From: Aquisphaera insulae
GTDB lineage: Bacteria > Planctomycetota > Planctomycetia > Isosphaerales > Isosphaeraceae
Direction: 5' to 3'
Length of the DNA: 64,000 nt
Assembly: GCF_011064615.1 (NCBI RefSeq)
Contig: NZ_JAALJH010000018.1
Span: 1 to 64,000, forward strand
Shown here: positions 38,420 through 61,590 of the stretch, in pieces
How positions within the stretch are numbered: the first letter of the stretch is position 1
Layout: each line of letters opens with the position of its first letter
The notes under the pieces: model-generated
Told to the model about the DNA's origin: nothing
What the model saw: only the letters and a program-made list of their open reading frames with translations
Databases searched by the model: none
Translations under genes and position numbers: made by a program

Positions 38420-39457
38420 TCACGACAGCTCGCTCGTCAACCGTCGGTCGAGATCATCGACTACCGTGCGCGAGACCTCGAGGGCCCGCCGGAACATGGC
38501 TTCGACCATTGCGACGTCGGCCAGGTATTCGACCTGGCTTATATGTCCAGCCCGCCCGAAGGAGACGCTGGCACTCCGATCTGCCTGTCGGTCCTTCGTC
38601 GCGATGGCGGAGAACCTCTCGACAAGCTCGGGGAACGCGAAGGTCCCATCGGGGACCTGCACGCTTCGGAGTGCCTGCCCCATTCGGCGATACTCGAGGT
38701 GAGCTCCCCCGCTCGCGGAGATCTCCAACTTCCATGATCCCCCGAATCCGAGGCGAAGGCTGTTCACCGGCCCCCGGTTCTCCTCGAGGAATCGCAGGCC
38801 CTCCTCGTCGTTGGTGGCGAGCCAGTAATCGCGGTGACCCATGTCCGCCACGAGGACGTGCCCCCACAGGTGGAAGCTGTAGCTCTGGTCGCTTCCGTAG
38901 GCGTAGGGCCCGTCGATCCAGACCGGCGTCACCGAGTTCCGCATCCCGAAGAACTTCGTGCTCAGGGCGTCGTCCGTCATGCGGTGGAGCGATCCGAACA
39001 CCAACTCCTGGAGGACGTAGGTGATGAGCAGGCGAGAGAGCGACACGGAGACGAGCTCTTCGGCCTCGGAGTAGACGCCGAACCGGTCCGGCTTCTGAGA
39101 GTAGCTCCAGACGGGCGGGTCCTCGCCGGAGGGAAGGGTGCGGCACTGCCAGACCTGTTGACTCTCCTCGAGGAAGACCACCTTGCCGGATTCGTCGTGG
39201 GTCAGGCCGTCGGGGCCGTTGAGCCAGTCCTGGTTCGGGTAGAAACCGAGGAATCCGCCGTTCGACCGATCGTAGCGGCCGGCGAACTCGTAGAGGCGTC
39301 GCAGGGGCATCGGAACCCGGAGATCGTCGGGCACCGACGCGAGCTCCCCGAGGGCCGGCCGGGCCGGCCGGAGCCAGTACTCGATGAACTCGCAGAGGGC
39401 ATCCATTCGCCCCGCCGCGGATCTTGCCTCCATCAGCCTCGGCCGGTAGGCGCTCAT
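38420..39457 (-). CDS. Unknown protein, SMI1/KNR4-like, last gene of an accessory operon
   Basis: A 345-residue cytoplasmic protein. Segments such as PMPLRRLYEFAGRYDRSNGG, WLNGPDGLTHDESGKVVFLE, VWSYSQKPDRFGVYSEAEEL and YWLATNDEEGLRFLEENRGP resemble the SUKH (SMI1/KNR4) fold seen in immunity proteins against toxins. The similarity is by pattern only. The gene starts 45 bp after the DUF4276-like gene ends on the same strand. It may be the immunity or accessory component of that module, or merely a bystander. Confidence 0.55.
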   Translation of the reverse strand: MSAYRPRLMEARSAAGRMDALCEFIEYWLRPARPALGELASVPDDLRVPMPLRRLYEFAGRYDRSNGGFLGFYPNQDWLNGPDGLTHDESGKVVFLEESQQVWQCRTLPSGEDPPVWSYSQKPDRFGVYSEAEELVSVSLSRLLITYVLQELVFGSLHRMTDDALSTKFFGMRNSVTPVWIDGPYAYGSDQSYSFHLWGHVLVADMGHRDYWLATNDEEGLRFLEENRGPVNSLRLGFGGSWKLEISASGGAHLEYRRMGQALRSVQVPDGTFAFPELVERFSAIATKDRQADRSASVSFGRAGHISQVEYLADVAMVEAMFRRALEVSRTVVDDLDRRLTSELS

Positions 39458-39502
39458 GGTCGACCCTGGAGTCCTCGCTTGAACGGAGCCGAGTCCGAAT
39501 CG

Positions 39503-40209
39503 TCAGTGAAGTCTCGCGTCGCGGATCTGGCGGTCGAGCCAGGCAGTGAAGGTCTTGAAGCGTGGACATCGGACTGCGACCTTCTCGGGATCGATCATTG
39601 CCAGCAATTTGCTGGCATGCTTGATCTTGGAGTTGTTCTTCTCTGTATATGCCTTCTTGATGGTATCCTTCGTCGCTTCGGCCAGCTTTGCGTAGAGATC
39701 TTGCTTCGGCTCCTCCTCCAGATTCTGACGCTGAGGGAGTTTGCCAGGGCGGAAGCCCTGTTTGTAGAACTCCGACAGGGCGGCCGGATCGGCCACGATC
39801 CAGGTTTCCATGCAGGTGACCATGAGATGGATGTTTTCAACGTCGATGCCCTTCAGGTCCCAACGATCTCTCTTGAAGAGATGGTCGCGGCGATCCTCGG
39901 CGTTGCGTCGCTCTCGACGCTCGATCTCATCGGACGGCTCCGAATCGGCCGAGGTGTGCTCGGCGGGCAAGAGGGCTTCCGAATCCACGAGCAAGATGAT
40001 CAGGGTCGACCCGTCTCCCTTGTACACAGCGTCTTTGAATGCTCTGTAGGCGCTCTCTCGGCCGCCGCAGGGCACGAGCCTCCATTTGAGTCGGCAAACA
40101 CGAGCGGCTTCCTTCTGCCTTCGGAGTAGGCGATCGAAACCAATTCGCAGCTCTGCCTTCTGCTGGCAGAGTCACCCCCACCTTCCAAGTAGATGACGAT
40201 GGATGTCAC
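39503..40209 (-). pseudogene. DUF4276 (TOPRIM-like) protein, frameshifted
   Basis: The GTG at 40209 overlaps the ATPase stop by 4 bp (GTGA) and starts MTSIVIYLEGGGDSAS, a typical DUF4276 N-terminus with the TOPRIM-like EGGGDS element. That frame then diverges; the family continues in another frame as QKAELRIGFDRLLRRQKEAA, then WRLVPCGGRESAYRAFKDAV, STLIILLVDSEALL and AALSEFYKQGFRPGKLP down to 39503. The join is at about 40165, with a TGA in the second frame just upstream (about 40172). No obvious slippery heptamer is visible. So it is a broken gene, a programmed frameshift, or a sequencing error. Both TOPRIM-type elements, Glu near the start and LLVDSE, are otherwise preserved. Confidence 0.7.
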
Positions 40210-41396
40210 GGATTCCCCCCGAGCTCACCGATCCTCCAGAGCTCGCCGAGACGGTACTTCTCGAGCCAGGAGGCGAGCGATTCGGGATCGACCCTCTCGA
40301 GAACCGTGCCGTTTCGGTACTCGCACGTGAGGACAGCTTGGGGTTGGTCCGACAGACCGGAGATGAGTTCGTCGGAGTGGGTCGTGACGATCAGTTGCGT
40401 GCGTTCCGAGGCTTCCATGAAGAGGTCAGCCAGGATCGAAACCGCGTCGGGGTGGAGACCTAGCTCCGGCTCCTCGATACAGGTTAGCGGAGGTGGTGAT
40501 GGGTCGAGAAGCAAGGCCAGGATGGCCATGAATCGGATCGTCCCGTCGGATAGCCGCGTCGCGGGGATGGGGGCTTTGAGTCCCTTCTCGTGAAGGTAGA
40601 ACTGGACGGTCCCTCCCTGGACTCGCGTCGAGAAGTGGGCATACCGAGGCATGAAGAGAGCGAGCAGGCGATTGAATTCCGCCCCCGCGTTGCTGTGCTC
40701 GATCTCGTTCAGGAGCAGACCAAGATTGCGAGAATCGGCCAGGAGAGGGCTTGAAGGTAGATCGGCGGGCTGAGGCTGTCGCAGGGAGACATGACGTCCG
40801 ATGCTCCATTCCCTGAAGATCTGGATGAGCCTGTACTGTTCGCCTAGCCAGGTCACTTCGGGATAGGATTCAGGATCCTTTCGTTGCGAGAGGACCGATT
40901 CATCCGGCTTGAGGTCCTCTCGCCTGAGAGCGCGTCTCTCTTGCTTTCCTTCGGTCGTACGAACATTCAGCGCCGGCCGTCCCTCCTGATAGCGGTAATA
41001 GAAGAAGACGTCGACTTGATTGTCATAGCGTGGGTTTGGCTCCTCGATGGCCTCATTGAGGATTTCGGTCCTCGCTCCGCTGGCCGCGAAAGAAAGCTGA
41101 TGTCTGAGGTCGGAAATAAAACGATCAGTGTGAATGACGACATCGATCTCGGCCGACTGAGGCGTCGGGTCTCCCTTCCAGAGCCATTCACGCGGGCCTC
41201 CCCCATCCCGGATCGCGTTCGCGAACGCCGTGGGGGCAGCGTGCAGCAGCTCGATTGCCTCGATCAGGTTCGATTTTCCCCCTCCATTCGGTCCGATGAT
41301 CACGTTGAGCGGCTCCAGGTCGATGGGTGCCGATCCTGGGGGAAAGGACAGGAAGCCATCCAGGCGAATCGACTTGAGGAATCCGTGACGGGGCAT
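40206..41396 (-). CDS. AAA/OLD-type ATPase (AAA_15/21)
   Basis: A 396-residue soluble ATPase. Walker A is GPNGGGKSN (35-43), the ABC-like signature is LSDGTIRFMAILALLL, Walker B is LTCIEEPELGLHPDAV, and a switch His follows in LIVTTHSDELISGL. The central 200 residues are a variable insertion, as in OLD/AAA_15 proteins. The ATG at 41396 starts the classic HGFLKSIRLDGFLSF opening. It overlaps the DUF4276 gene by 4 bp, so both are co-translated. In OLD and PARIS-like defence systems such ATPases pair with TOPRIM partners; assignment of defence function here is inference. Confidence 0.85.
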   Translation of the reverse strand: MPRHGFLKSIRLDGFLSFPPGSAPIDLEPLNVIIGPNGGGKSNLIEAIELLHAAPTAFANAIRDGGGPREWLWKGDPTPQSAEIDVVIHTDRFISDLRHQLSFAASGARTEILNEAIEEPNPRYDNQVDVFFYYRYQEGRPALNVRTTEGKQERRALRREDLKPDESVLSQRKDPESYPEVTWLGEQYRLIQIFREWSIGRHVSLRQPQPADLPSSPLLADSRNLGLLLNEIEHSNAGAEFNRLLALFMPRYAHFSTRVQGGTVQFYLHEKGLKAPIPATRLSDGTIRFMAILALLLDPSPPPLTCIEEPELGLHPDAVSILADLFMEASERTQLIVTTHSDELISGLSDQPQAVLTCEYRNGTVLERVDPESLASWLEKYRLGELWRIGELGGNP

Positions 41397-41461
41397 CGTC
41401 GTTGCCTCCGAAGTTTGAGCAACCGCTTCGGCACCATCTTACGGCATGCGATCGATGGGAT

Positions 41462-42262
41462 TCAAAGGGAGCCATCACGACTCGATGACTCCCCGGTCTT
41501 CATCCTGATCCTCACCAGCAGGTCATCCAGCGCAGCCCTGGACGTCGGCCCCTCGGGCAGCCGGCTCGCCTTATGGGCCGACTCCAGGTCGCCGCGAAGC
41601 CGCTCGTACTCCGAACGATGAAATTCGACGTCCGAATCCTCGAGGGTCGCCCGCTCCGGACCGGCGAGCTTCCGTGCGATCAGGTCGCCGACATGCCCCA
41701 ATCTTGCCTCGTCCGCGAGCCGAACCAGGTTCGCCTCCACCTCGCCGGTCCGCATCAGGTGGATTCCCGTCAGGAGGACGCGGTACACGTAGAGCAGCGG
41801 CTTCACGCGTCGGGGCCGCTCCCCGTCGAAGAGCCTCCACTGGGTCTCGGCGAAGCCGAAGTAATGATGGCTGTGATGCCGCGTGATGCAGCCCGCGGCG
41901 ATGGCCTTCAGCTCCTCGTGCTCCGGAGTCGCGACGACGACCAGGGGCGAGAAGACCTGCTCCAGGACATAGCCGTTCTTCTTCAGCAGGAGCCGGAAGA
42001 ACTTGAGGGCGTCGTGCGTGACCATGTCGAGCTCGAAGCCCTGTTCCACCCGCTCGATCTCGACGGTCTCTCGTCCCGGGTCGAGCCCGATGACGTCGCG
42101 GAGCGGCAGCAGGTGACAGCCCCGGAGGTCGTAGTCCGAGTCGGGCGATGGGAAACCGTAGAGATGCGCCCCGCTGACCGTCGCGAAGAGGAGCGGGAAT
42201 GGATGGCCCTCGGCCGCTTCCCGCAGCCGGCGCATCGCATCGGGAGTCACGATGTCGTTCAC
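41462..42262 (-). CDS. RlaP-type nucleotidyltransferase (second copy)
   Basis: A 266-residue protein of the DNA polymerase-beta-like nucleotidyltransferase superfamily, RlaP branch. The active site is LLFATVSGAHLYGFPSPDSD followed by YDLRG (G-x-x-x-G-x-x-x-x-D-S-D-x-D). It includes ELDMVTHDALKFFRLLLKKN, a helical tail and a His-rich region HHSHHYFGFAETQWRLF. The start is GTG at 42262, overlapping the previous gene's TGA (42261-42259) in a GTGA junction. RlaP proteins were named for association with RNA ligases; the reaction and substrate are unproven. It forms a pair with the upstream paralogue. Confidence 0.8.
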   Translation of the reverse strand: MNDIVTPDAMRRLREAAEGHPFPLLFATVSGAHLYGFPSPDSDYDLRGCHLLPLRDVIGLDPGRETVEIERVEQGFELDMVTHDALKFFRLLLKKNGYVLEQVFSPLVVVATPEHEELKAIAAGCITRHHSHHYFGFAETQWRLFDGERPRRVKPLLYVYRVLLTGIHLMRTGEVEANLVRLADEARLGHVGDLIARKLAGPERATLEDSDVEFHRSEYERLRGDLESAHKASRLPEGPTSRAALDDLLVRIRMKTGESSSRDGSL

Positions 42263-43161
42263 AGGATGTCCCTCACGCGCTCCAACTCGGCCCGGATGGC
42301 CCGCAGGGCACTCACGGCCCGGTCGGGGTCCTCTACGCATCCTTCGAGGCGACCGTAATGCTCCTCCAGGCAATCCAGCAGCAAGCGGCGGATCCTCGGC
42401 TCGTCGGGCGTCGCCGGCAGGGTGCTCGCGGCGTACGCACGCTCGAGCTGCGATTCCTTCTCCGCGCACCAGACCCGGAGGCGTTCCTCGGTCCACTCGC
42501 CCCGGCGGATGGCCTTGAGCGGCTCGTTGTTCCGCTGGAGGTCGATGTCGTGCTCGGTCAGGATCATCTCGACCTCGCCGAGCAGGCGGACGACGTGATA
42601 GGCGAACTTGACATCGTAGCCGTGCTCCCGCACGAGCTCCGCGCGACGGCCCTGGGGCGCCTTGATCGCGATCTTGTGCAACTGAGAATAGGCATACCCC
42701 TTGAACTTCGGCCACGCTCCGCGGTGCAGGAAGATCCGGCGGTTCTCGCGGACGAGGTTGCCGACCCGCGTGCTGTGCAGGACGCAGTTGACGGGCGTGA
42801 ACAGGCTGTCCAGGATGTTCGGGTTGTTCTCCATCGCCAGGTTGAAGAACTTGACGATCCCGTAAATCGTCACGTCATAGACCCTGCCGCGGCCACCGAG
42901 GGCATCGTCGTCGCGGATGTGGTGCTGCTGGAACTGCTCGAACCGCGGGCCCGGCGTGCCGAAGCCCTCGACCTCCCCGCGAAGGTGCGGGAAGACGTCG
43001 TCCCTGGGCGGGATCGCCCAGCCGTAGACGTCCAGGTCGCTCGTGTCGGACGAGACGCCGTAGGCGACGGACCCCATGATCGTCTCGTACTGGACGTTCC
43101 CCGGCAGCCATCGCGGCGGCTTCGCGAGCCCCCGGTCGGTCAGGCGTTGCAGCGTGCTCAT
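42259..43161 (-). CDS. RlaP-type nucleotidyltransferase (first copy)
   Basis: A 300-residue protein with the same fold: YETIMGSVAYGVSSDTSDLD then VYGWAIPP is the G-S-x-x-x-G ... SDxD active site. Other family blocks are YDVTIYGIVKFFNLAMENNP and NILDSLFTPVNCVLH, then KFKGYAYSQLHKI and HGYDVKFAYHVVRLLGEVEM. ATG at 43161 has GGAGGT 8 bp upstream, while the upstream frame extension to 43233 is not needed. It is the first gene of a five-gene minus-strand run, 99 bp downstream of the sulfatase-like gene. Confidence 0.8.
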   Translation of the reverse strand: MSTLQRLTDRGLAKPPRWLPGNVQYETIMGSVAYGVSSDTSDLDVYGWAIPPRDDVFPHLRGEVEGFGTPGPRFEQFQQHHIRDDDALGGRGRVYDVTIYGIVKFFNLAMENNPNILDSLFTPVNCVLHSTRVGNLVRENRRIFLHRGAWPKFKGYAYSQLHKIAIKAPQGRRAELVREHGYDVKFAYHVVRLLGEVEMILTEHDIDLQRNNEPLKAIRRGEWTEERLRVWCAEKESQLERAYAASTLPATPDEPRIRRLLLDCLEEHYGRLEGCVEDPDRAVSALRAIRAELERVRDIL

Positions 43162-51179: not shown

Positions 51180-51389
51180 CGCGTCCTGGACCCGGGACGA
51201 CGGAGCATTGCATGATGACCGAGCCGCGTGGGAGCGGCCGGCTCATCATCTCATGATTCAACCGCTTCCGCGAGTCGGAAGCGGCGGAGTCCTCCAGATC
51301 GCGGCCCCCCACCCTCCCGGGCCGCAGGTATCGGCGGCCTTGACCGCCCCACCTCGATCGGCCAGGATGAGGTCGGCATTGTTGGGCCG

Positions 51390-54332
51390 ATGGGAATTCG
51401 AATGCGGCGACGCTGGCGACGACTCGCGATCGGGGCGGGGCTTCTGGCCCTGGCCTGGGGCGCCTTCATGCGTCTCGATGCCTGGCGGTCGCGCGGGCAG
51501 CTCGGCCTCGCCCAGCGGGAGATCGGCCGCGGCCAGTTCGAAATCGCCCGTCAGCGGCTGACGGCCCTCGCGGCCCGTGACGGCGCGCTCGACGGCATGG
51601 CCAACTACTGGTTGGGCATCTGCGAGTCGCTCGACGGCCACTCCGACGCCGCGGCCCGAGCCTTCGACCGCGTCCCTCCCGGGTTCGCGTTCGACCCGAT
51701 CGGCGCCTATCACGAAGCGAAGGCGAACCTGTCGCGGGGCCGGCTCTTGCCCGCGGAGCGTCGACTCGAGGCGGCCCTCGGTCAGGACGGGCCGGTCCGT
51801 GAGAAGATCCGGGAGTTGCTCCGCCGGGTCTACGAGCTCGAGGTCCGGTTCGACGACGTCAGGGGGCTCGTCCGCGACCGCCTGGCCGCCGCGGAGGATC
51901 CCCTGAACGACCTGAGAGACCTCAGCAATCTCGACCTCAACCGCCTCCCCTACGAGGGCCTGAGGGGGGCGATCGAGAAGGCCGGCACGGCCGCGCCGGA
52001 GGACGCTCGCGTCTGGCTGGGGAAGTCCAGGCTGGCGATCGAGGCCGGGCACTGGGACGAGGCGGACGACTGGTTGCGAAAGTGCCGGCAAGCCGGGGCC
52101 GACGCGCCGGTCTGGCGCGCTCAACTGGAATGGGCTCGTGGCACGTCGCGGACCGCCGAGGCGATCGAGGCGGCCCGACGGCTCGGCCGGGATGGCCTCG
52201 ACCCGGCCGCGAGGCTCGACCTCCGCGCCTGGCTCGCGGGGCAGGATGGCGACCGCGAGGCGGAAGCCTCCGCACTCGATGCCTTGCTCGTGCTCGAGCC
52301 GGGGGCGATCCGGGCGATGGAGCGGCTCGTCGACCTGGCCCATCAGGCCGGCCGCGCGGAACGCGTTGCGGAGTTGCGACGACGCCAGGGCGACGTCGAG
52401 GGGGCGATGGCGGCGTACCGCGTCCTCCTCTGGCGAAAGGCACCCCCGCACACGCCCTCGGAGCGGATCGAGCTAGCCCGCCTTGCGGAGGCGGCCGGCC
52501 TTCGTCACGAGGCCCGCGCGCTCTTCGCCTGGGGCCTGCGGGCGACCCCTGATGACCCGGCGGCCCGCGAGGGGCTCGCCCGACTCGATCGCGACGACCC
52601 GGAGCGGCGGCAGGCGCTCGCCGAGTCGGCCCGCGATCTGCCCCAGGAAGGGGACCATGGGGCCGGTCGGCCGGCCATGCCCAGCCGTCCTGCGGATAGC
52701 CGCCTCGCCTTCACCGACGACGCCGAGTCGGCCGGCCTCCGCTTCGTCTTCGACAACGCCGAGACGATCCTCCATCAACTCCCCGAACCGTTCAGCGGCG
52801 GTCTGGCGGTGCTCGACGTCGACAACGACGGCTGGCTCGACGTCTTCTGCGTCCAGGGCGGCCCCTACACCCCGGATCCGTCGGCAGCCCGGCCCGCCGC
52901 CGACGCGGGGGACCGGCTCTTCCGCAATCGCGGAGACGGAACCTTCGAGGACATCACGGCGCGATCGGGCATCGACTGCTTTCCCCGGGGTCACGGTCAT
53001 GGCGTGGCGGTGGGCGACGTCGACAACGACGGGCTCCCCGACCTGTTCGTGACCCGCTGGCGGTCCTACGCCCTCTACCGGAACCTCGGCGGCGGACGCT
53101 TCGAGGACGCGACCGATCACTGGGGCCTGGGTGGGAGCCGCGACTGGCCCACCTCCGCGGCGTTTGCCGACCTCGACGGTGACGGCGACCTCGACCTCTA
53201 CGTCTGCCACTACGCGGCCTGGGATCTCGACCATCCCCAGATTTGCCGCGACGCCAAGACGCAGGCGTACCTCAACTGCAACCCGCTCGACTCCGAGGCC
53301 CTCCCCGACCACCTCTTCCGCAACGACGGCGGCCGGTTCGTCGACGTCACGGCAGAGGCCGGGATCGTCGACGGCAACGGCCGCGGACTCGGCGTGGTCG
53401 CCGCCGACCTCGACGCCGACGGCCGCGTGGACCTCTTCGTCGCCAACGATTCCTCGGCCGATTACCTCTTCCACAATCGGGGAGGCATGCGGTTCGAGGA
53501 GATCGGCCATCTCGCCGGAGTGGCCAGCAACTCGTCCGGGATCTACCAGGCCGGCATGGGGACCGCCGCGGGCGATCTCGACGGCGACGGGCTGATCGAC
53601 CTGATCGTCACCAACTTCTACGGCGAGTCCACGACCTTCTTCCGCGGACTGGGCGGCGGGACCTTCACGGACACGACGGAGGCAATCGGCCTGACGATCG
53701 CCAGCCGCCACCTCCTCGGCTTCGGGGTCGGCCTCGTCGACGTCAACGACGACGGTCGGCTCGACATGGTCACGGCCAATGGCCACGTCAACGACCTCCG
53801 ACCCAACTACCCCTACCAGATGCCGGCCCGGGTCCTGCTCGCCGGCGCCGACGGACGGTTGAAGGACGTCTCCGACCTCTCCGGCGACGCGTGGAAGGTC
53901 CCCCGCATGGGACGTGGCCTCGCGGTCGTTGACCTGGACAACGACGGTCGCCAGGACGTGCTGATCCTCTCGCACAATCAACCGATGGCTTATTTCCACA
54001 ACCGGACCGAGGGCGGCCGGTTCCTGACCCTTCGGCTGGAGGGCACCCGGTCAAACCGGGACGCCGTCGGCGCGAAGGTCACGCTGATCCGCCCCGGTGG
54101 GAACCGCGTGGCCTGGCGGACCGGCGGTGGCAGCTTCCAGTCCGCCTCCGATCCCCGGATCCATTTCGGGCTCGGCGCGGACGGTCGGATCGAGGCCGTG
54201 GAAGTCGCCTGGCCCTCGGGGCGCGTCAATCAGTTCCGCGGCTTCCAGCCCGACTCCGGCTACCTGCTGCGCGAGGGGCATGACCGTCCGGAACAGCTCG
54301 ACGGTTTCCGCGGGAGGTCGCCTCGCCCGTGA
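51390..54332 (+). CDS. TPR/FG-GAP-VCBS repeat protein with ASPIC/UnbV domain (paralogue)
   Basis: About 980 residues with the same architecture as the preceding gene: an N-terminal anchor (LAIGAGLLALAWGAFMRLD), TPR-like region, FG-GAP repeats (VLDVDNDGWLDVFCVQGGPY, GDVDNDGLPDLFVTRWRSYA, ADLDGDGDLDLYVCHYAAWD, DLDADGRVDLFVAND) and the C-terminal ASPIC/UnbV block (NRDAVGAKVTLIRPGGNRVA and then WPSGRVNQFRGFQPDSGYLL). Similarity to the neighbour runs through every domain, so the pair arose by duplication in divergent orientation. Starts at 51390 and 51402 are both possible; none has a strong Shine-Dalgarno. It ends 4 bp before the convergent pnkp stop. Confidence 0.9.
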   Translation: MGIRMRRRWRRLAIGAGLLALAWGAFMRLDAWRSRGQLGLAQREIGRGQFEIARQRLTALAARDGALDGMANYWLGICESLDGHSDAAARAFDRVPPGFAFDPIGAYHEAKANLSRGRLLPAERRLEAALGQDGPVREKIRELLRRVYELEVRFDDVRGLVRDRLAAAEDPLNDLRDLSNLDLNRLPYEGLRGAIEKAGTAAPEDARVWLGKSRLAIEAGHWDEADDWLRKCRQAGADAPVWRAQLEWARGTSRTAEAIEAARRLGRDGLDPAARLDLRAWLAGQDGDREAEASALDALLVLEPGAIRAMERLVDLAHQAGRAERVAELRRRQGDVEGAMAAYRVLLWRKAPPHTPSERIELARLAEAAGLRHEARALFAWGLRATPDDPAAREGLARLDRDDPERRQALAESARDLPQEGDHGAGRPAMPSRPADSRLAFTDDAESAGLRFVFDNAETILHQLPEPFSGGLAVLDVDNDGWLDVFCVQGGPYTPDPSAARPAADAGDRLFRNRGDGTFEDITARSGIDCFPRGHGHGVAVGDVDNDGLPDLFVTRWRSYALYRNLGGGRFEDATDHWGLGGSRDWPTSAAFADLDGDGDLDLYVCHYAAWDLDHPQICRDAKTQAYLNCNPLDSEALPDHLFRNDGGRFVDVTAEAGIVDGNGRGLGVVAADLDADGRVDLFVANDSSADYLFHNRGGMRFEEIGHLAGVASNSSGIYQAGMGTAAGDLDGDGLIDLIVTNFYGESTTFFRGLGGGTFTDTTEAIGLTIASRHLLGFGVGLVDVNDDGRLDMVTANGHVNDLRPNYPYQMPARVLLAGADGRLKDVSDLSGDAWKVPRMGRGLAVVDLDNDGRQDVLILSHNQPMAYFHNRTEGGRFLTLRLEGTRSNRDAVGAKVTLIRPGGNRVAWRTGGGSFQSASDPRIHFGLGADGRIEAVEVAWPSGRVNQFRGFQPDSGYLLREGHDRPEQLDGFRGRSPRP

Positions 54333-54335
54333 GGA

Positions 54336-56912
54336 TCAGAGCCTCGGATCAACGGGCTCGCTCTCGAGGGCGAGGACCCCGAAGACGCACTCGTGGACAC
54401 GTCGCAACGGCTCGCGGCGGACGAACCGTTCGAGGCCCTCGATCCCGAGCGCGAACTCGCCGAGGGCGAGCGAACGCTTGCGTCCGAGCCCGCGCGAGCG
54501 AAGACGGCTGAGGTTCTCTTCCGCCGTGTACTCGGGCCCGTAGATGATCCGCAGGTACTCGCGGCCGCGACACTTCACGGCCGGCTGCACGAGTCCGCGC
54601 CGTCCTCGATGGAGGAAGGCCAGCGGCTTCACGACCATCCCCTCGCCGCCCCGTCCCGTGTGCTCGAGCCACCAGGCAATCCCCGCCTCCTGGCTGGCCG
54701 GATCGGTGACGTCGACGACCAGGGACCGGGTCGCGACCAGGAGCGCGGGATCGGCCCGGCTGAATTCGGCGAGGGTCTCCATGTGCCAGAGGTGATCGCG
54801 GTCGACGTGGACCCGCCCCTCGGAGGCCAGCAGATGAAACGGCGCCAGCTTCAGGTCGTCGAGCGACTCCACCTTCCAGCAGTACTGACGGTAGGCGGCC
54901 ACGAACTTCGCGATGTCCTGCTCCCGACGGCGGTAGACCGACTCCGCGGCGAGGATCTTCTCCCGCTCCTCGCCGTCCAGCCGGCCCGCCGTTCGCTCGA
55001 GCGCGGCGACGGCCCGGGGCGTCGCGGCCGACCCCGCGGCTCCGACGGCCGCGTACTGCGTCTTCAGCAGCTCCTGGGCCTTGGCCGACCACGGCATGAG
55101 TTCGCAGTCGAGCAGGACCCAGGAGGTGTCGATCCGGCCCCAGATATCCGCCGCCGAGAGGGCCTCGCGGACACGGTCGAGGAATCGTCGTTCCAGGTCC
55201 GGGTCGTTGAAGAACCGTCGGCCGGTCCGCGTGGCGACGACGCCAAGCTCCCCCGTCGTCACGCCGAACCGCTGCGCGGCCGCCGCCTCGTCCTTGCAGG
55301 CGACGACGACCGCGCGGGAGCCCATGTGCTTCTCCTCGCAGATCACCTGCGGCACGCCCTCGGCCCGGTAGTAGGCGAACGCCTCCGCGGGATGTTCGAG
55401 CAGGCCCTCGGCCCGGCTGGTCTCGCATGGGGACATCGTCGGCGGCAGGTAGACCAGCCAGCGCGGGTCGGCGGCGAACCGGCTCATGACCTCGAGCGCC
55501 GCGGCGGCGTTCTCCTCGCGGATCGTCACGTTGCCGCGGAGGCCGGTGGAGATGATTCGCTTGCCCAGCACGTCCTCGGCGTCGAGTACCTCGTCGTGCG
55601 CCTGCTGGGCCGTGAGCCTCGGCGCCTGCTCTTCGACCGGCAGGAACGGACGGGCCGGCTCGCAGTAGGTCCGCGCGGCGGGGACCGAGACGAGCTCCTT
55701 CTCCGGGTAGCGGAGCGCCGTGAGCTTGCCGCCGAAGACGCAACCGGTGTCGATGTTGATCGTGCGGTTGAGCCACTCCGGAGTGGGGACCGGCGTGTGG
55801 CCATAGACAACCATGGCCTCGCCGCGATACTCCTTCGCCCAGTTGTAACGCACGGGGAGGCCGAACTCGTCGGTCTCGCCCGTCGTTTCTCCGTAGAGGG
55901 CGAACTCGCGGACCTTGCCGGATCCCCTGCCCTGCATCTCCTGCTTCATCCCGGCGTGGGCGACGACGAGCTTGCCGCCGTCGAGGACGTAATGGCTGAC
56001 GAGCGCGTCGAGGAATTCCGCCGCGGCACGGCGGAATCCGCCGTGATGTCCCTCGAAGGCTTCGAACTGGCTGAGCGATTCCGCGAGGCCGTGCCTGACC
56101 TGGACGTTCCTGCCCGAGACCGCGCGCACGAACTTGACGTCGTGGTTTCCCGGCACGCAGAGCGCGGTCCCGGCCCTGACGCTGTCCATGACCAGCCGGA
56201 CCACGTCCGGGATGCGTGGTCCGCGGTCGACCAGATCGCCCACGAAGACCATCTTGCGCCCCTCCGGATGCGACCAGGCGCCGTCGGGTCCGGTATGAGC
56301 ATAGCCCAGCAACCCGAGCAGCAGCTCCAGCTCATCGCCGCAGCCGTGGACGTCGCCGATGATGTCGAACGGCCCGTGGTCGTCCGTCCGGTCATTCCAG
56401 AGCGGCACGCGCTCGATGACCGCGTCCTCGACCTCCTCCGACGATTCGAGCCGGAAGACGTGGCGAAAGCCCTCCTTGCTCAGCCCGCGGAACGACCGCC
56501 GCAACTGCGACGCCTGGTTGCGGATCACGTGCGGGCCGAACGCGCGATCCAGCCGCGCGGCGTTGCGCTCGTGGCAGATCCGCTCCGGCAGGTCCAGCAC
56601 GATCGCCACCGGCAGGCAGTGATACTGCCGGGCCAGCTCCACGAGCGGCCTGCGTGCCTCGGGCTGGACGTTGGTCGCGTCGATGACCGTCAGCTTCCCG
56701 AGCGCCAGCCGCTTGCTCGCCACGTACCGGAGCACGTCGAACGCGTCCCTCGTCGCCTCCTGGCTGTTCTCATCGTCCGAGACCATGCCGCGGAAGACGT
56801 CGGAGGAGAGCACCTCGGTGGGCTTGAAGTGCTTGTGCGCGAACGTGCTCTTGCCCGATCCGCTGGGGCCGACCAGGACGACGAGGCTGAGTTTGGGGAT
56901 CTTGATGGTCAT
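54336..56912 (-). CDS. pnkp: Polynucleotide kinase-phosphatase / ligase, RNA repair enzyme
   Basis: An 858-residue three-domain RNA repair enzyme. The N-terminal kinase has P-loop GPSGSGKST (15-23, Lys21, Ser22). The central metallophosphatase has GDVHG (Asp187, His189), GDLVDRGPR, GNHD, and VYGHTPVPTPEW. The C-terminal ligase domain has the nucleotidyl-Lys in EEKHMGSRAVVV (about Lys528). These positions coincide closely with those known for Clostridium thermocellum Pnkp (Lys21, Asp187, His189). The enzyme heals broken RNA ends (5' kinase, 2',3' phosphatase) and, with Hen1, seals them. ATG at 56912. It is the last gene of a four-gene operon. Confidence 0.92.
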   Translation of the reverse strand: MTIKIPKLSLVVLVGPSGSGKSTFAHKHFKPTEVLSSDVFRGMVSDDENSQEATRDAFDVLRYVASKRLALGKLTVIDATNVQPEARRPLVELARQYHCLPVAIVLDLPERICHERNAARLDRAFGPHVIRNQASQLRRSFRGLSKEGFRHVFRLESSEEVEDAVIERVPLWNDRTDDHGPFDIIGDVHGCGDELELLLGLLGYAHTGPDGAWSHPEGRKMVFVGDLVDRGPRIPDVVRLVMDSVRAGTALCVPGNHDVKFVRAVSGRNVQVRHGLAESLSQFEAFEGHHGGFRRAAAEFLDALVSHYVLDGGKLVVAHAGMKQEMQGRGSGKVREFALYGETTGETDEFGLPVRYNWAKEYRGEAMVVYGHTPVPTPEWLNRTINIDTGCVFGGKLTALRYPEKELVSVPAARTYCEPARPFLPVEEQAPRLTAQQAHDEVLDAEDVLGKRIISTGLRGNVTIREENAAAALEVMSRFAADPRWLVYLPPTMSPCETSRAEGLLEHPAEAFAYYRAEGVPQVICEEKHMGSRAVVVACKDEAAAAQRFGVTTGELGVVATRTGRRFFNDPDLERRFLDRVREALSAADIWGRIDTSWVLLDCELMPWSAKAQELLKTQYAAVGAAGSAATPRAVAALERTAGRLDGEEREKILAAESVYRRREQDIAKFVAAYRQYCWKVESLDDLKLAPFHLLASEGRVHVDRDHLWHMETLAEFSRADPALLVATRSLVVDVTDPASQEAGIAWWLEHTGRGGEGMVVKPLAFLHRGRRGLVQPAVKCRGREYLRIIYGPEYTAEENLSRLRSRGLGRKRSLALGEFALGIEGLERFVRREPLRRVHECVFGVLALESEPVDPRL

Positions 56913-56926
56913 TTCTCGTCCTGGCC

Positions 56927-57592
56927 TCACCATCTCTCGATGACCCCTCGATCGTGGAGCCAGTCCGCCTCTGTCCGGGGCGGGATGGAGTCTTCGGACG
57001 GGGGAAACAATGCTTCGATGTCGGATTTCTCGCGGGAAAGGAACACGACCACGCCATCTCGTGCGTTGAAGAAGCCCAGGAAGTAGGCCCATGAGTCGTC
57101 GATTCGAATCGCGCTCAGGATCCGAGCCAGCCTCTCGCCGCTTGGGCCCTCACGCCGCAAGTTGCGACGCGGGGTGATGTAGAAGGATTCGTGCAGGCGT
57201 CGCATGCCCTGTATTTCCACGACCTGCATCTCGGCCAAAAGCCGCATGGCCTCGGCGTCGGGGATCGGGCCGGGCAGGGCCAACGCCGCGGAGCTTTTGT
57301 AGCAAGAGCAGCGGTCGCACATCTCCACGAATCGTCTCTCGGACCTCGGCTCATACCGGGCGTACTCGGTCGGTTCGCCCATTCTCAACGGGCTATCGAG
57401 GAAGAGGGTTGGAGATTCGCCGACCTCGATCCCGGCCGCGGGTGCCCAGAGGCGTGACGCCACCTCATCGCCGTAGCGTTGAAGCCGATCCTCTGCGTAA
57501 AGCGCGATGTCCTGGCCTCGAGAACAAGCCAGGCCCCAGATTCGCGAGTCCGGGCTGGCCGTATGATGGAACATGACGACGCCGTGATTCAC
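56927..57592 (-). CDS. Unknown protein between HEAT and pnkp genes
   Basis: A 221-residue protein with no recognised domain. The start is a GTG at 57592 that overlaps the HEAT gene stop (57591-57589, GTGA junction), giving MNHGVVMFHHTASPDSRIWG. It contains a Cys cluster EMCDRCSCYKSS (about 85-95), which may bind metal, a central helix, and the ending PPRTEADWLHDRGVIERW. It ends 14 bp before pnkp starts. Its place within an RNA repair operon points to a role there, but no direct evidence exists. An ATG at 57574 would be a shorter alternative. Confidence 0.65.
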   Translation of the reverse strand: MNHGVVMFHHTASPDSRIWGLACSRGQDIALYAEDRLQRYGDEVASRLWAPAAGIEVGESPTLFLDSPLRMGEPTEYARYEPRSERRFVEMCDRCSCYKSSAALALPGPIPDAEAMRLLAEMQVVEIQGMRRLHESFYITPRRNLRREGPSGERLARILSAIRIDDSWAYFLGFFNARDGVVVFLSREKSDIEALFPPSEDSIPPRTEADWLHDRGVIERW

Positions 57593-58440
57593 GATGACTC
57601 CCCAGCGTCTGAACCCTCCACTGAACACGCCTGGATCGCCTCTTCGAGCTCCGATTCGCGAACATTTGGCTGACCGCGAAAGGCGACGAGAAGCGGATAC
57701 AGCTCGGGGGCGCGAATCAGGGCTGCGGACTCCATGAGATTCGACCCGATCAGACCCGCGGCAAGCTCCTCGCGGAGCATCGGCAGCATCCTCCGATCGC
57801 CCCGACGGGCGAGGCCGAGGATCGCCTCCTCCCTCGTCTCGAGATCCTCGTCGGCCAGTCGGGCGGCGAGGGCCGCGCGGATTTCCGGCGTGTCCAGGTC
57901 CGTCTGCGATCCGAGCCCGAACGTCGCCCAGTCCCGGACGTAGTCGACCGGATCACGCGTCAGCTCGATCAGTGCCGCAACGGCCTCGGGGTTCGCGAGA
58001 CCCGTCATCGCGAAGGCGACGGCGTGGCGGATGTCGGGATTCCCGTGCTTTCGGAAACGGCCTGCGATCGCGGCCGTTTCCTCCCGCCTGAGATGCGACA
58101 GGGCCGTCATGATAGCGGCTAGACTCTCCTCATCCCGCTCTGCTTCGATCATCATGCGAAGCGTGCGGTAGCATTCCTCCGGAAATGTCCGTTCGGGCAG
58201 GCCAAGCTGCCCGAGGATGTGTGCCCCGACACGACGCTCGACCGGACAGGTGCTTCGGCAGAGCGCGACGGCCCGGTCCATGATCTCTCGCGATCCTCTC
58301 CACTGCAGGATCGAGATGGCTTGCCAGGTAAGATCCTCGTCACTCTCGCAGAGAGCCGACGTCATCAGCTCATCGACCGTTCGCGGATCGTCGGGCGGGT
58401 TCAGGGGCCAAGCGACGGTGATCGGCGCGTCTTCAGTCAC
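57589..58440 (-). CDS. HEAT-repeat protein in the RNA repair operon
   Basis: A 283-residue all-helical protein, with HEAT/armadillo-like repeats such as DEDLTWQAISILQWRGSREI, RVGAHILGQLGLPERTFPEE, HAVAFAMTGLANPEAVAALI, YVRDWATFGLGSQTDLDTPE and TREEAILGLARRGDRRMLPM. HEAT repeats form protein scaffolds. The GTG at 58440 overlaps the hen1 stop by 8 bp (58440-58433), and its own stop overlaps the next gene by 4 bp. No enzymatic motif is seen. Confidence 0.75.
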   Translation of the reverse strand: MTEDAPITVAWPLNPPDDPRTVDELMTSALCESDEDLTWQAISILQWRGSREIMDRAVALCRSTCPVERRVGAHILGQLGLPERTFPEECYRTLRMMIEAERDEESLAAIMTALSHLRREETAAIAGRFRKHGNPDIRHAVAFAMTGLANPEAVAALIELTRDPVDYVRDWATFGLGSQTDLDTPEIRAALAARLADEDLETREEAILGLARRGDRRMLPMLREELAAGLIGSNLMESAALIRAPELYPLLVAFRGQPNVRESELEEAIQACSVEGSDAGESS

Positions 58441-59839
58441 GATGGAAGACTCCCATCTGCGTCGGGGGCCCCAGCCGGTCATCGACCGGCCCGATCGGCA
58501 GGAAGCGGACCTCGTAACCATGCCGAGCGGCGATCCTCTCCGCCCAGGCGTGGAACTCAGCCCTTGTCCACTCGAAACGGTGGTCGGGATGGCGGAGGCG
58601 ATCGGCCCCGACGTTCTCCCAGGTCACGTTGTACTCGCGGTTGGGCGTCGTGAGGATGATCGTGGATGGCCGGGTGAACGCGAACAGGACTCGCTCGAAG
58701 GCGGCCAACCGGGGCGGGTCCAGGTGCTCGACGACTTCCACGACGGCCGCGGCGTCGAACCCCTCTAGTCGCCGATCACGGTAGATCAGCGAGCCGTGGA
58801 GCAGCTTGATGCGGGCCGCCTGGCGCTCGGGAAGGCGGTCGAGCTTCAATCGGTCGCGGGCATTTTCCAGCGAGCGGATCGACACGTCCATGCCGACGAT
58901 CTCGGCGAATTCGGGATCCTTGAGCAGCTCTCGGAGCAGCTTCCCCTCGCCGCAGCCGAGGTCAAGGACCCGTCGGGCTCCGCTCGACCGGAGTGCAGCC
59001 AGGACGGCGCCGATCCGCTGTTCGTGGAGGCTCAACGGCTTCTCGAGAATGCTTTCGGCCTGGTCGCTCCGTCGCGGTTCCTCCTCGTTCGTGCTCGCTT
59101 CCGCGGGTTCTTCCTCCTCGACCAGCCGGGCGAGGGCCTGCCTGTAGAGGCTCGGTTGCGACCGGAGATAGCGGCGGGTGATCGCCTCCCGCGCGGGATG
59201 GTTGGCCAGCCAGCCGGCCCCCTTGGTCAGGAGCTTCTCGATCTCGTCGTCGCCCACGAAGTAGTGCTTCTGGTTGTCGAAGACGGGGACCAGGACGTAC
59301 AGGTGCGTGAGCAGGGCGGAGAGCGTGACATCGCCGGCGACCGTCACCGAGTAGTACGGGCCCTCGCCCCACTCCGGGAACCGATCGTCGAGCGGATGCC
59401 GTGTGGCCTCGACGCGGTAGCCGAGCGGTTCGAAGAGGGCGCGGAGGAAGGGTTCGCCGCCGCGGACGGGGAGGACGTCAAGCCGGGCCTCGAGCGGGAT
59501 CGGCGTCCTCGCCAGCTCGGGCCGATCGTTGCATCGGCCCTGGAGCGCCGTGCCGAGCACCTGGGAGATCGCGACGCTGAGGAACGACGAGGCGACATAC
59601 GGCCGGTCGTTGACGTACTGGTCCAGCAGCCCTTCCCCGGCTCCCCTGCCCCGGACCACGCCGACCGGGTCCACGTCCAGCAGCAGGCACGCCGTGCAGC
59701 GCTCCGCCGACGCCTCGGGATAGAAGGCATGTGCCTTACCGAAGCTCAGCTCGTAGGTCTGGAACCGCCCCGGATGCTTATGCAGCAGGTAGCTGAGATC
59801 CGCGGCGGGCCGGTGGGTGGTGGTAATCGTCAGGAGCAT
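58433..59839 (-). CDS. hen1: 3'-terminal RNA ribose 2'-O-methyltransferase Hen1
   Basis: A 468-residue bacterial Hen1. The N-terminal half (about 1-240) is the Pnkp-activating ligase-accessory domain with LDVLPVRGGEPFLRALFEPL, and THLYVLVPVFDNQKHYFVGD. The C-terminal methyltransferase has the SAM-binding VLDLGCGEGKLL and the metal site VVEVVEHLD (Glu368, Glu371, His372), followed by TIILTTPNREYNV and LRHPDHRFEWTRAEFHAWAE. It methylates the 2'-OH of the 3'-terminal nucleotide at an RNA break before ligation, protecting the repaired RNA. ATG at 59839. It heads the operon; pnkp is the last gene. Confidence 0.92.
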   Translation of the reverse strand: MLLTITTTHRPAADLSYLLHKHPGRFQTYELSFGKAHAFYPEASAERCTACLLLDVDPVGVVRGRGAGEGLLDQYVNDRPYVASSFLSVAISQVLGTALQGRCNDRPELARTPIPLEARLDVLPVRGGEPFLRALFEPLGYRVEATRHPLDDRFPEWGEGPYYSVTVAGDVTLSALLTHLYVLVPVFDNQKHYFVGDDEIEKLLTKGAGWLANHPAREAITRRYLRSQPSLYRQALARLVEEEEPAEASTNEEEPRRSDQAESILEKPLSLHEQRIGAVLAALRSSGARRVLDLGCGEGKLLRELLKDPEFAEIVGMDVSIRSLENARDRLKLDRLPERQAARIKLLHGSLIYRDRRLEGFDAAAVVEVVEHLDPPRLAAFERVLFAFTRPSTIILTTPNREYNVTWENVGADRLRHPDHRFEWTRAEFHAWAERIAARHGYEVRFLPIGPVDDRLGPPTQMGVFHRD

Positions 59840-60187: not shown

Positions 60188-60275
<88 letters not shown>

Positions 60276-60789: not shown

Positions 60790-61080
60790 TCAGGCGAGCC
60801 GAGGGGCGACGGGATGGATGAGCCGGACGACGGCGTCGAGCAGCTCCGGGCCCGCGAGGGTCCGCGACAGCGTCGCCAGGACGTTCGTCCAGGCCTCGAA
60901 CGCCCGCGTGCCCCGCTCGGTCTTCGTGCAGTGCGACACCTTCCGCGCGATCACCGCCGGCCGCAACGCCCGCTCGGCGCGGTTGTTCGTCGGCTCGATC
61001 GACGGGTCGTCCAGGAACCGCAACAGCGACCAGGCGTCGTTGCACCCGCCCAGCCCATCCAGCAACCGTTGGTTGTCTAC
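60790..61080 (-). pseudogene. IS66-family transposase, C-terminal fragment
   Basis: The reverse frame gives NDAWSLLRFLDDPSIEPTNN, RAERALRPAVIARKVSHCTK and TERGTRAFEAWTNVLATLSR, the C-terminal block of an IS66 TnpC transposase (EPTNNRAERALRP is diagnostic and includes the catalytic Glu). The N-terminal two thirds, TnpA/TnpB and terminal repeats are missing. The fragment joins a decayed secreted-protein gene at about 61080. Confidence 0.8.
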
Positions 61081-61590
61081 GTAAAGGTGCTGTAGTCGTC
61101 GGGATCCTGGGCGCCGGCCCGGGAATCGACGCCCTCGATCGAGACGGCCAGCGCCTGGACCAGGGGCCATGACAGGCCGGCCTTGGTGAGGTCGACGGAG
61201 AGGATGCCGAGGAGGTAGTTGCCGGAGGGGAGGAGATCGACGATCGCGGCGTACTGCACCGCGCCCGAATTGGCCCGCGGCCGAAGTCGCTGATCAGGGC
61301 CCTATCGCCGCCGAACTGGGCGCTATCCAGGGCGAAGGAGAAGGCCGAGAAATCCGCTCCGCTCCCCGTCAGGGCGCCGCTGCTGGGCGTGACGTCCAGG
61401 CCGAAGAGCCGAGCTCGTAGCTCGACTCGGTGCCGGAGGGGGCGAAGTTCAGGTTGACGTCAAAGCTCAAGATGTCGCCGGAGACGCCCGCCGGACCGAG
61501 CGAGTAGACCGCCGTGATGTCCGCCATCGCGGGAGGGCTCGCCATCTGGACCCCGACTTACGCGGCCAGCCGCAGGGCCCGTGACAACAT
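61077..61590 (-). pseudogene. Secreted protein gene, frameshifted and truncated
   Basis: An ATG at 61590 with AGGAG upstream starts MLSRALRLAA and then a stop (TAA). Other frames continue with MADITAVYSLGPAGVSGDIL, FDVNLNFAPSGTESSYELG, FGLDVTPSSGALTGSGADFS, FALDSAQFGGD and AVQYAAIVDLLPSGNYLLGI down to 61077. The pattern fits a beta-sandwich secreted protein of the PEP-CTERM kind (no sorting tail remains). At least two to three frameshifts are needed, and the 3' end is cut by the IS66 fragment. Confidence 0.6.

What the first reader, a model, noticed from the sequence alone, without database searches (positions are those of the whole stretch)
54336..59839. RNA-repair operon hen1-HEAT-unknown-pnkp with two extra genes in the middle
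Hen1 and Pnkp are the known bacterial RNA repair pair: Pnkp heals and seals broken RNA and Hen1 adds a 2'-O-methyl mark and activates the ligase. Here they are separated by two unrelated genes, a HEAT-repeat protein and a protein of no known family, with overlaps of 8 bp and 4 bp and a 14 bp gap, so all four genes should be made together. Seen: gene order, overlaps and catalytic motifs. Inferred: the two middle genes are part of the repair machine, perhaps for target recognition or assembly.
Basis: partly seen in the sequence, partly recalled or inferred. Interest (0 to 1): 0.85.

Follow-up and report, generated by a model that had tools for sequence, protein, structure and literature searches.

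The report
RNA-repair operon with swappable middle genes
Some bacteria mend broken RNA with two enzymes, Hen1 and Pnkp, and in this group the gap between their two genes turns out to be a place where different helper genes are swapped in and out; here it holds an acidic repeat protein and a protein of unknown kind.

Summary
On the minus strand lie hen1 (58433-59839), a HEAT-repeat gene (57589-58440), an orphan gene 'UNK' (56927-57592) and pnkp (54336-56912), with overlaps of 8 and 4 bp and a 14-bp gap. The exact order was seen in no other of 103 fetched hen1-pnkp loci, but the place matters: the two genes are at most 200 bp apart in 52, 302 bp in 1, over 400 bp in 50. The slots hold 121 called genes, 119 co-directional; 27 of 50 slots hold RlaP, Thg1, kinase or RNA ligase genes. 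Contents turn over. The HEAT family sits directly behind hen1 in 7 of 23 genomes (3 with pnkp elsewhere) and behind RlaP pairs in 2; 11 of 23 show no repair neighbour. UNK was found in 3 genomes, just before pnkp or a pnkp remnant. HEAT resembles E. coli YibA and is strongly acidic, so it more likely binds a protein than RNA. Eleven kb downstream the window holds two RlaP genes, an HEC-01-like pair and an orphan, all of families seen in the slot elsewhere. Verdict: a cargo slot inside a known RNA-repair operon; HEAT and UNK are probable accessory modules; their mechanism is inferred.

The parts
58433..59839 (-). hen1, 3'-terminal RNA ribose 2'-O-methyltransferase, 468 aa
   Evidence: TIGR04074 708.9 bits, Hen1_L 367.9 bits
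57589..58440 (-). HEAT-repeat protein, YibA/PRK09687-like, 283 aa, GTG start, pI 4.6; first gene of the slot, 8-bp overlap with hen1
56927..57592 (-). UNK, orphan family, 221 aa, GTG start, last gene of the slot, 4-bp overlap with HEAT
54336..56912 (-). pnkp, kinase-phosphatase-ligase, 858 aa
   Evidence: TIGR04075 1414.7 bits; AAA_33, Metallophos, PNKP_ligase
42259..43161 (-). RlaP-family nucleotidyltransferase (first of a pair) in a second cluster 11 kb downstream of pnkp on the same strand
   Evidence: PF10127 61.4 bits; the genome search gave two RlaP matches, both here
41462..42262 (-). RlaP-family nucleotidyltransferase (second), 4-bp overlap with the first
   Evidence: PF10127 178.5 bits; 65-70% identical to slot genes of other genomes in the best matches listed
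40206..41396 (-). AAA_21 ATPase, HEC-01A type
   Evidence: PADLOC HEC-01A 522 bits; 73% identical to a gene between hen1 and pnkp in L039
39503..40171 (-). DUF4276 protein (HEC-01B type); its open frame lacks the N-terminal residues of the L039 homologue, may be broken
   Evidence: PF14103 68.1 bits; 58% identical to a slot gene of L039
38420..39406 (-). F331, orphan family that also sits between hen1 and pnkp in L022 and L112
   Evidence: 36-40% identity; no Pfam hit at E<=0.05

Best explanation
In the window's class the hen1-pnkp operon contains a cargo slot between the hen1 stop and the pnkp start. Accessory genes of an anti-ribotoxin toolkit are exchanged there: the end-restoring polymerases RlaP and Thg1, polynucleotide kinases, RNA ligase, and small proteins without a known enzyme domain. 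Nearly all cargo is read in the operon's direction, so cargo and repair enzymes are probably made together. In this genome the slot holds an acidic YibA-like HEAT solenoid, whose gene overlaps hen1, and the orphan UNK, whose gene precedes pnkp by 14 bp. Shown: the slot, its turnover, the repeated hen1-HEAT linkage, and purifying selection on both genes. Inferred: after a ribotoxin cleaves RNA, Pnkp heals and seals it and Hen1 marks the 3' end, while HEAT acts by binding a protein (the damaging nuclease or a repair enzyme) and not RNA, and UNK assists Pnkp.
For: 103 loci from 103 genomes: gap at most 200 bp in 52, 302 bp in 1, over 400 bp in 50 (48 with at least one co-directional called gene); 119 of 121 called slot genes co-directional; 27 of 50 slots with RlaP, Thg1, kinase or ligase, 31 if R2K ATP-grasp is added. 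On the Pnkp tree of 97 loci occupied/empty needs 21 changes; RlaP 14, F305 5, HEAT436 5, HEAT 1. L021 and L023 are 88-92% identical in hen1, kinase-Thg1 and pnkp, but the contents differ; the homology resumes exactly at the pnkp start codon and ends 8 bases before the hen1 stop of L021, 32 before that of L023. HEAT directly behind hen1 in 7 of 23 genomes, 3 of them with pnkp elsewhere, behind RlaP-RlaP in 2, one gene from KptA in 1. UNK just before pnkp in 2 of 3 and before a pnkp remnant in 1 of 3. Other phylum: Deinococcus gobiensis and D. ficus plasmids carry RlaP-RlaP (PF10127, 134-173 bits) in the same slot, and the D. ficus gene before pnkp is homologous to the gene before pnkp in L125 (34% over 216 aa). 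HEAT pI 4.6, net -20; 4.2% of 1251 called genes are as acidic.
Against: The exact gene order is unique to this genome among the loci seen. Eleven of 23 HEAT genes have no recognised RNA-repair neighbour. On the Pnkp tree the slot HEATs may be a single event (1 change), and the 3 hen1-HEAT loci without pnkp nearby are of one genus. UNK has only 3 known members and its model failed (pLDDT 32). No expression, binding or activity data. Outside the class only 2 of 22 tree rows are occupied, and 13 of 15 listed plasmid loci are empty, so the slot is not general. Some slot genes look unrelated to RNA.
Confidence: 0.68

Rival explanations
1. Sub-mechanism within the slot reading: HEAT (and perhaps F305, HEAT436, UNK) are orphan immunity proteins that bind and block incoming nuclease toxins; they share the operon because neutralising the toxin and repairing its damage are wanted at the same time.
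For: HEAT's best natural relative in the PDB is E. coli YibA (1oyz, 108.8 bits). Expression of yibA neutralised growth inhibition by the RhsA C-terminal region (passage of PMC3150448). HEAT repeats are listed as immunity proteins, planctomycetes included (passages of PMC3482391). Strong acidity of HEAT, F305 and HEAT436. HEAT dN is 2.6-4.1 times that of hen1 and pnkp in the same pairs.
Against: No toxin gene was recognised beside a HEAT member when the gene lists were read by eye; no toxin family scan was made and the end of the L169 list was cut. The toxins named with HEAT in the passages of PMC3482391 are Tox-REase-7 and Ntox34, not known RNases in what I read. The match to PRK09687 is below its cut-off. 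HEAT dS is also higher than that of the neighbours, so part of the speed may be older divergence or transfer.
Confidence: 0.3
2. Sub-mechanism within the slot reading: HEAT and UNK are structural subunits of the repair complex; HEAT docks on Hen1 and UNK on Pnkp, and they decide which damaged RNA is taken up.
For: Positional rule: HEAT first after hen1 in 4 of 4 slots, UNK last before pnkp in 2 of 2, F132 last in 4 of 4. HEAT behind hen1 with pnkp elsewhere in 3 genomes.
Against: Most hen1-pnkp loci have neither gene. Acidity argues against direct RNA binding by HEAT.
Confidence: 0.3
3. The junction is a neutral landing site: genes that land there in the right direction survive because they do not break expression, and HEAT and UNK have nothing to do with RNA repair.
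For: Some slot genes look unrelated: transposase-like pieces and a small-protein pair in L122, a four-helix-type 122-aa gene in L112 (these identities are my reading, no family scan). Low GC3 of HEAT and UNK (0.76 each; window mean 0.88, sd 0.06 over 47 called genes) could mean recent arrival.
Against: 27 of 50 slots carry known RNA-repair enzymes. HEAT stands beside RlaP, KptA and hen1 outside the slot too.
Confidence: 0.12

Closest known systems
Bacterial Hen1-Pnkp RNA repair pair
   Same: Full Hen1 and full three-domain Pnkp, same order, same operon
   Different: Two extra genes in the middle. PMC4411300 states that the genes for Pnkp and Hen1 are always in the same operon (passage); the four passages I saw mention no inserted genes
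[quoted passage not shown] passages)
   Same: Hen1 working with kinase, phosphatase and ligase activities
   Different: There hen1 lies far from the operon with the other two genes; here Pnkp is one chain and shares an operon with hen1
RlaP, Thg1 and polynucleotide-kinase RNA repair neighbourhoods (passages of PMC7824862, and PMC2904730)
   Same: The same enzyme families fill the slot in other genomes; an RlaP pair stands 11 kb away in this window
   Different: Those passages describe RlaP or Thg1 with RNA ligases and kinases, not a swap slot between hen1 and pnkp. The main survey (Burroughs and Aravind 2016) is not held and was not read
YibA / PRK09687 HEAT protein, RhsA-linked
   Same: Near full-length match; YibA (1oyz) is the best natural match in the PDB
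   Different: Score below the family cut-off; in the class searched it is found beside RNA-repair genes in 10 of 23 genomes
HEC-01 candidate defence system (PADLOC) and PARIS (AriA/AriB)
   Same: AAA_21 plus DUF4276 genes in the second cluster of the window and in the slot of L039; the ATPase also matches AriA (127 bits)
   Different: The window's DUF4276 frame lacks its N-terminus; a tRNase activity like that of AriB (passages of PMC12409363) is not shown for DUF4276

Membership tests
bacterial Hen1-Pnkp RNA repair system | Hen1 with Hen1_L and methyltransferase domains over the curated cut-off | tested here: met
   708.9 bits against 340
bacterial Hen1-Pnkp RNA repair system | Pnkp with kinase, phosphatase and ligase domains over the curated cut-off | tested here: met
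   1414.7 bits against 750
bacterial Hen1-Pnkp RNA repair system | hen1 and pnkp in one operon | tested here: met
   Same strand, overlaps of 8 and 4 bp, gap of 14 bp, with two genes inserted; co-transcription itself not tested
bacterial Hen1-Pnkp RNA repair system | repair and methylation activity on cleaved RNA | not testable with these tools
   needs biochemistry
YibA / PRK09687 family | score over the curated cut-off | tested here: not met
   182.7 bits against 275
YibA / PRK09687 family | near full-length HEAT-repeat match | tested here: met
   residues 22-273 against 24-280 of 285; 1oyz 108.8 bits
Imm-HEAT immunity proteins | adjacent toxin gene | tested here: inconclusive
   Neighbours read by eye (end of the L169 list cut); no toxin family scan
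HEC-01 | HEC-01A ATPase next to a HEC-01B DUF4276 protein | tested here: inconclusive
   A: 522 bits. B: DUF4276 68.1 bits but N-terminus missing in frame; the window copy was not scanned with PADLOC, the L039 copy was (187.5 bits)
RlaP | PF10127 over the gathering score | tested here: met
   61.4 and 178.5 bits against 23

The most novel reading that the evidence does not exclude
The hen1-pnkp junction is an evolvable countermeasure slot: beside repair enzymes it stores swappable acidic proteins (HEAT, HEAT436, F305) and orphans (UNK, F132) that neutralise particular RNA-cutting toxins, so one operon both disarms the attacker and mends the damage, and its contents record the ribotoxins that a lineage has met.
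Probability: 0.28. Interest if true: 0.82.

Novelty: new variant of a known kind. Interest (0 to 1): 0.62.

Why it matters
It gives a list of candidate anti-ribotoxin proteins of unknown function, marked out by where their genes sit, and ties a YibA-type HEAT family to RNA repair. It also makes testable whether bacteria update RNA repair by swapping modules at one fixed place.

Tried and rejected
A fixed four-gene machine: rejected, because the exact order was seen once among 103 loci.

UNK in known families: no hit at E<=1 in Pfam, NCBIfam or PADLOC. Its profile finds nothing significant in the PDB (best E 0.45) and, in a sample of 392 phylum genomes, only two weak matches (E 0.004 and 0.009) besides the window and G021. 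The structure model failed (pLDDT 32). The HEAT model from a single sequence is all-helical but of modest confidence (pLDDT 58.6), so no fold search was run on it.

Phages: no Hen1 match at E<=1e-20. Rfam over 36000-64000: only the tRNA. Direct RNA binding by HEAT: thought less likely because of its acidity.

Not examined: of 46 further phylum genomes with a Pnkp match 40 were fetched; of 81 further class genomes 60 were fetched; the matches left out were partial or split in the listings. Six of the 103 loci are missing from the tree (97 rows) because Pnkp was short or interrupted. Two of the 50 occupied loci (L080, L156) have no co-directional called gene. Gene calls come from my own codon-usage caller; starts are uncertain and it called HEAT and UNK of the window too short. 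Family labels come from clustering, with Pfam run on representatives only. The class comparison (44 of 75 against 2 of 22, Fisher 2.7e-5) and the HEAT p-values ignore relatedness. In the phylogenies FastTree warned of long branches. GC3 below 0.765 is also seen in two called window genes unrelated to this finding.

'The class' means the code groups. That it is Planctomycetia is inferred: the two named relatives of UNK are titled Planctomycetales, which NCBI places in Planctomycetia.
Full report
On the minus strand, in order of transcription, lie hen1 (58433-59839), a HEAT-repeat gene (57589-58440), an orphan gene here called UNK (56927-57592) and pnkp (54336-56912). Hen1 and Pnkp score far above the curated cut-offs. 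I take both middle genes to start with GTG: UNK at 57592, since its two homologues carry NHGVVMF at the same place. The genome belongs to a group of 45 held genomes of one order.

The four-gene order is not conserved, but the junction is special. I fetched hen1-pnkp loci from the window's order, class and phylum. In 103 loci of 103 genomes both genes lie on one strand of one contig within 9 kb. The gap is at most 200 bp in 52, 302 bp in one, and more than 400 bp in 50; 48 of these 50 hold at least one co-directional called gene. Of 121 slot genes 119 run with the operon. Pfam on representatives names RlaP (20 slots), Thg1 (8) and AAA_33 kinases (8), R2K ATP-grasp (7, plus L126), an RNA ligase with an HD-kinase (2) and a carrier-protein/FGE fusion (3). 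Families without a Pfam match over cut-off are HEAT436 (5; HEAT_2 below cut-off), F305 (5), F132 (4), F705 (2), F122 (2) and UNK (2). Twenty-seven of 50 slots contain RlaP, Thg1, kinase or ligase; 31 if R2K is counted. In the window's own family 11 of 18 loci are occupied.

The contents turn over. On a FastTree of 97 Pnkp proteins, occupied versus empty needs 21 changes, RlaP 14, Thg1 7, R2K 7, F305 5, HEAT436 5, F132 4, UNK 2 and HEAT 1. Occupation is 44 of 75 in the class and 2 of 22 outside it (relatedness ignored). L021 and L023 are 91% identical in hen1, 92% in the kinase-Thg1 stretch and 88% in pnkp, yet one has UNK and the other HEAT436 before pnkp, and one has an extra 705-aa gene after hen1. 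The homology resumes exactly at the pnkp start codon and ends 8 bases before the hen1 stop of L021 and 32 before that of L023. The window and its sister L024 share HEAT, but the sister has FGE, ligase, HD-kinase and F132 where the window has UNK; there too the homology resumes at the pnkp start.

The slot exists beyond the phylum but is not common there. Among 15 listed plasmid records with Pnkp, hen1 is adjacent in 13 (two more records were not listed). In Deinococcus gobiensis and D. ficus the slot holds two RlaP genes (134-173 bits). D. ficus has a further gene before pnkp that is homologous (34% over 216 aa, E 6e-21) to the gene before pnkp in locus L125 of the window's class. D. taeanensis has hen1 followed by an RlaP pair, with no pnkp annotated in the 13-kb stretch shown.

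HEAT is tied to RNA repair. The family occurs in 23 of 397 class genomes at E<=1e-45. Four are in the slot, always first after hen1. Three, of one genus, are directly behind hen1 although pnkp lies elsewhere. Two follow an RlaP-RlaP pair, one is a gene away from KptA, two stand with F305 (a remnant in one) and a gene with weak ATP-grasp likeness, and 11 have no recognised repair neighbour. HEAT is acidic in the seven proteins printed one by one (pI 4.5-4.6, net charge -20 to -27); 4.2% of 1251 called genes are as acidic. Its best natural match in the PDB is E. coli YibA, whose expression neutralised growth inhibition by the RhsA C-terminal region (passage of PMC3150448). HEAT dN is 2.6-4.1 times that of hen1 and pnkp in the same pairs, with dN/dS 0.30-0.47 against 0.16-0.29; its dS is higher too. 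I read this as a protein that binds changing protein partners and not as an RNA-binding subunit.

UNK is less well placed. It was found in three genomes: in two as the last gene before pnkp, in the third directly before a 56-residue C-terminal remnant of pnkp with no hen1 in the stretch. It is under purifying selection (dN/dS 0.26-0.30). Its fold is unknown. A role with Pnkp is inferred from position alone.

A second cluster lies 11 kb downstream of pnkp on the same strand (38420-43161): RlaP, RlaP, an HEC-01A-type ATPase, a DUF4276 protein and F331. The ATPase and DUF4276 genes are 73% and 58% identical to the two genes between hen1 and pnkp in L039, and F331 is 36-40% identical to slot genes of L112 and L022. 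The genome search gave no other RlaP match. The sister genome has the RlaP pair (90% and 84%) 8 kb downstream of its pnkp, without matches to the other three in the 20 kb read. HEAT, UNK and the HEC-01-like pair have low GC3 (0.70-0.76, against a window mean of 0.88), which could mean recent arrival; two unrelated window genes are as low.

Mechanism, shown and inferred. Shown: the slot, co-directional cargo, turnover, and the HEAT linkage to hen1 and RlaP. From established knowledge (recalled): Pnkp heals and seals RNA and Hen1 methylates the 3'-terminal ribose. Passages of PMC7824862 give the predicted role of RlaP and the role of Thg1 in restoring lost nucleotides, and passages of PMC2904730 the Thg1-kinase link. 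Inferred: HEAT binds a nuclease or a repair enzyme, and UNK helps Pnkp. Five literature searches (listings, with passages read from nine papers in all) showed me no description of the slot, but the main 2016 survey of RNA repair systems is not held, so priority is not settled.

Noticed in passing
window 38420-43161 (-): Second cluster of five genes (RlaP, RlaP, HEC-01A-like ATPase, DUF4276, F331), all of families that sit between hen1 and pnkp in other genomes.
   Followed up: yes
window 39503-40171: The DUF4276 frame lacks the N-terminal residues of its L039 homologue; it may be broken.
   Followed up: partly
L185 5569-6809: Kinase-Thg1 pair elsewhere in the window's own genome (contig C201), of the families that fill the slot in L021 and L023.
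   Followed up: partly
L090 7805-12628: A gene with weak ATP-grasp likeness, F305 and HEAT in a row outside the hen1-pnkp locus; HEAT is split by a gene that looks like a transposase (read by eye).
   Followed up: partly
L024 7806-9107: Fusion of a phosphopantetheine carrier domain and an FGE-sulfatase domain among the RNA-repair genes of the slot; the family recurs in the slots of L025 and L142. Its role there is unclear.
   Followed up: no
window 60188-60275 (+): tRNA-Ser(GGA) gene upstream of hen1 on the opposite strand; a fragment that looks like a transposase lies beyond it at 60790-61259 (read by eye).
   Followed up: no
window 48255-54332: Two long genes in opposite orientation with similar protein sequences (tetratricopeptide-like N-terminus, FG-GAP-like repeats; names recalled, no scan made).
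   Followed up: no
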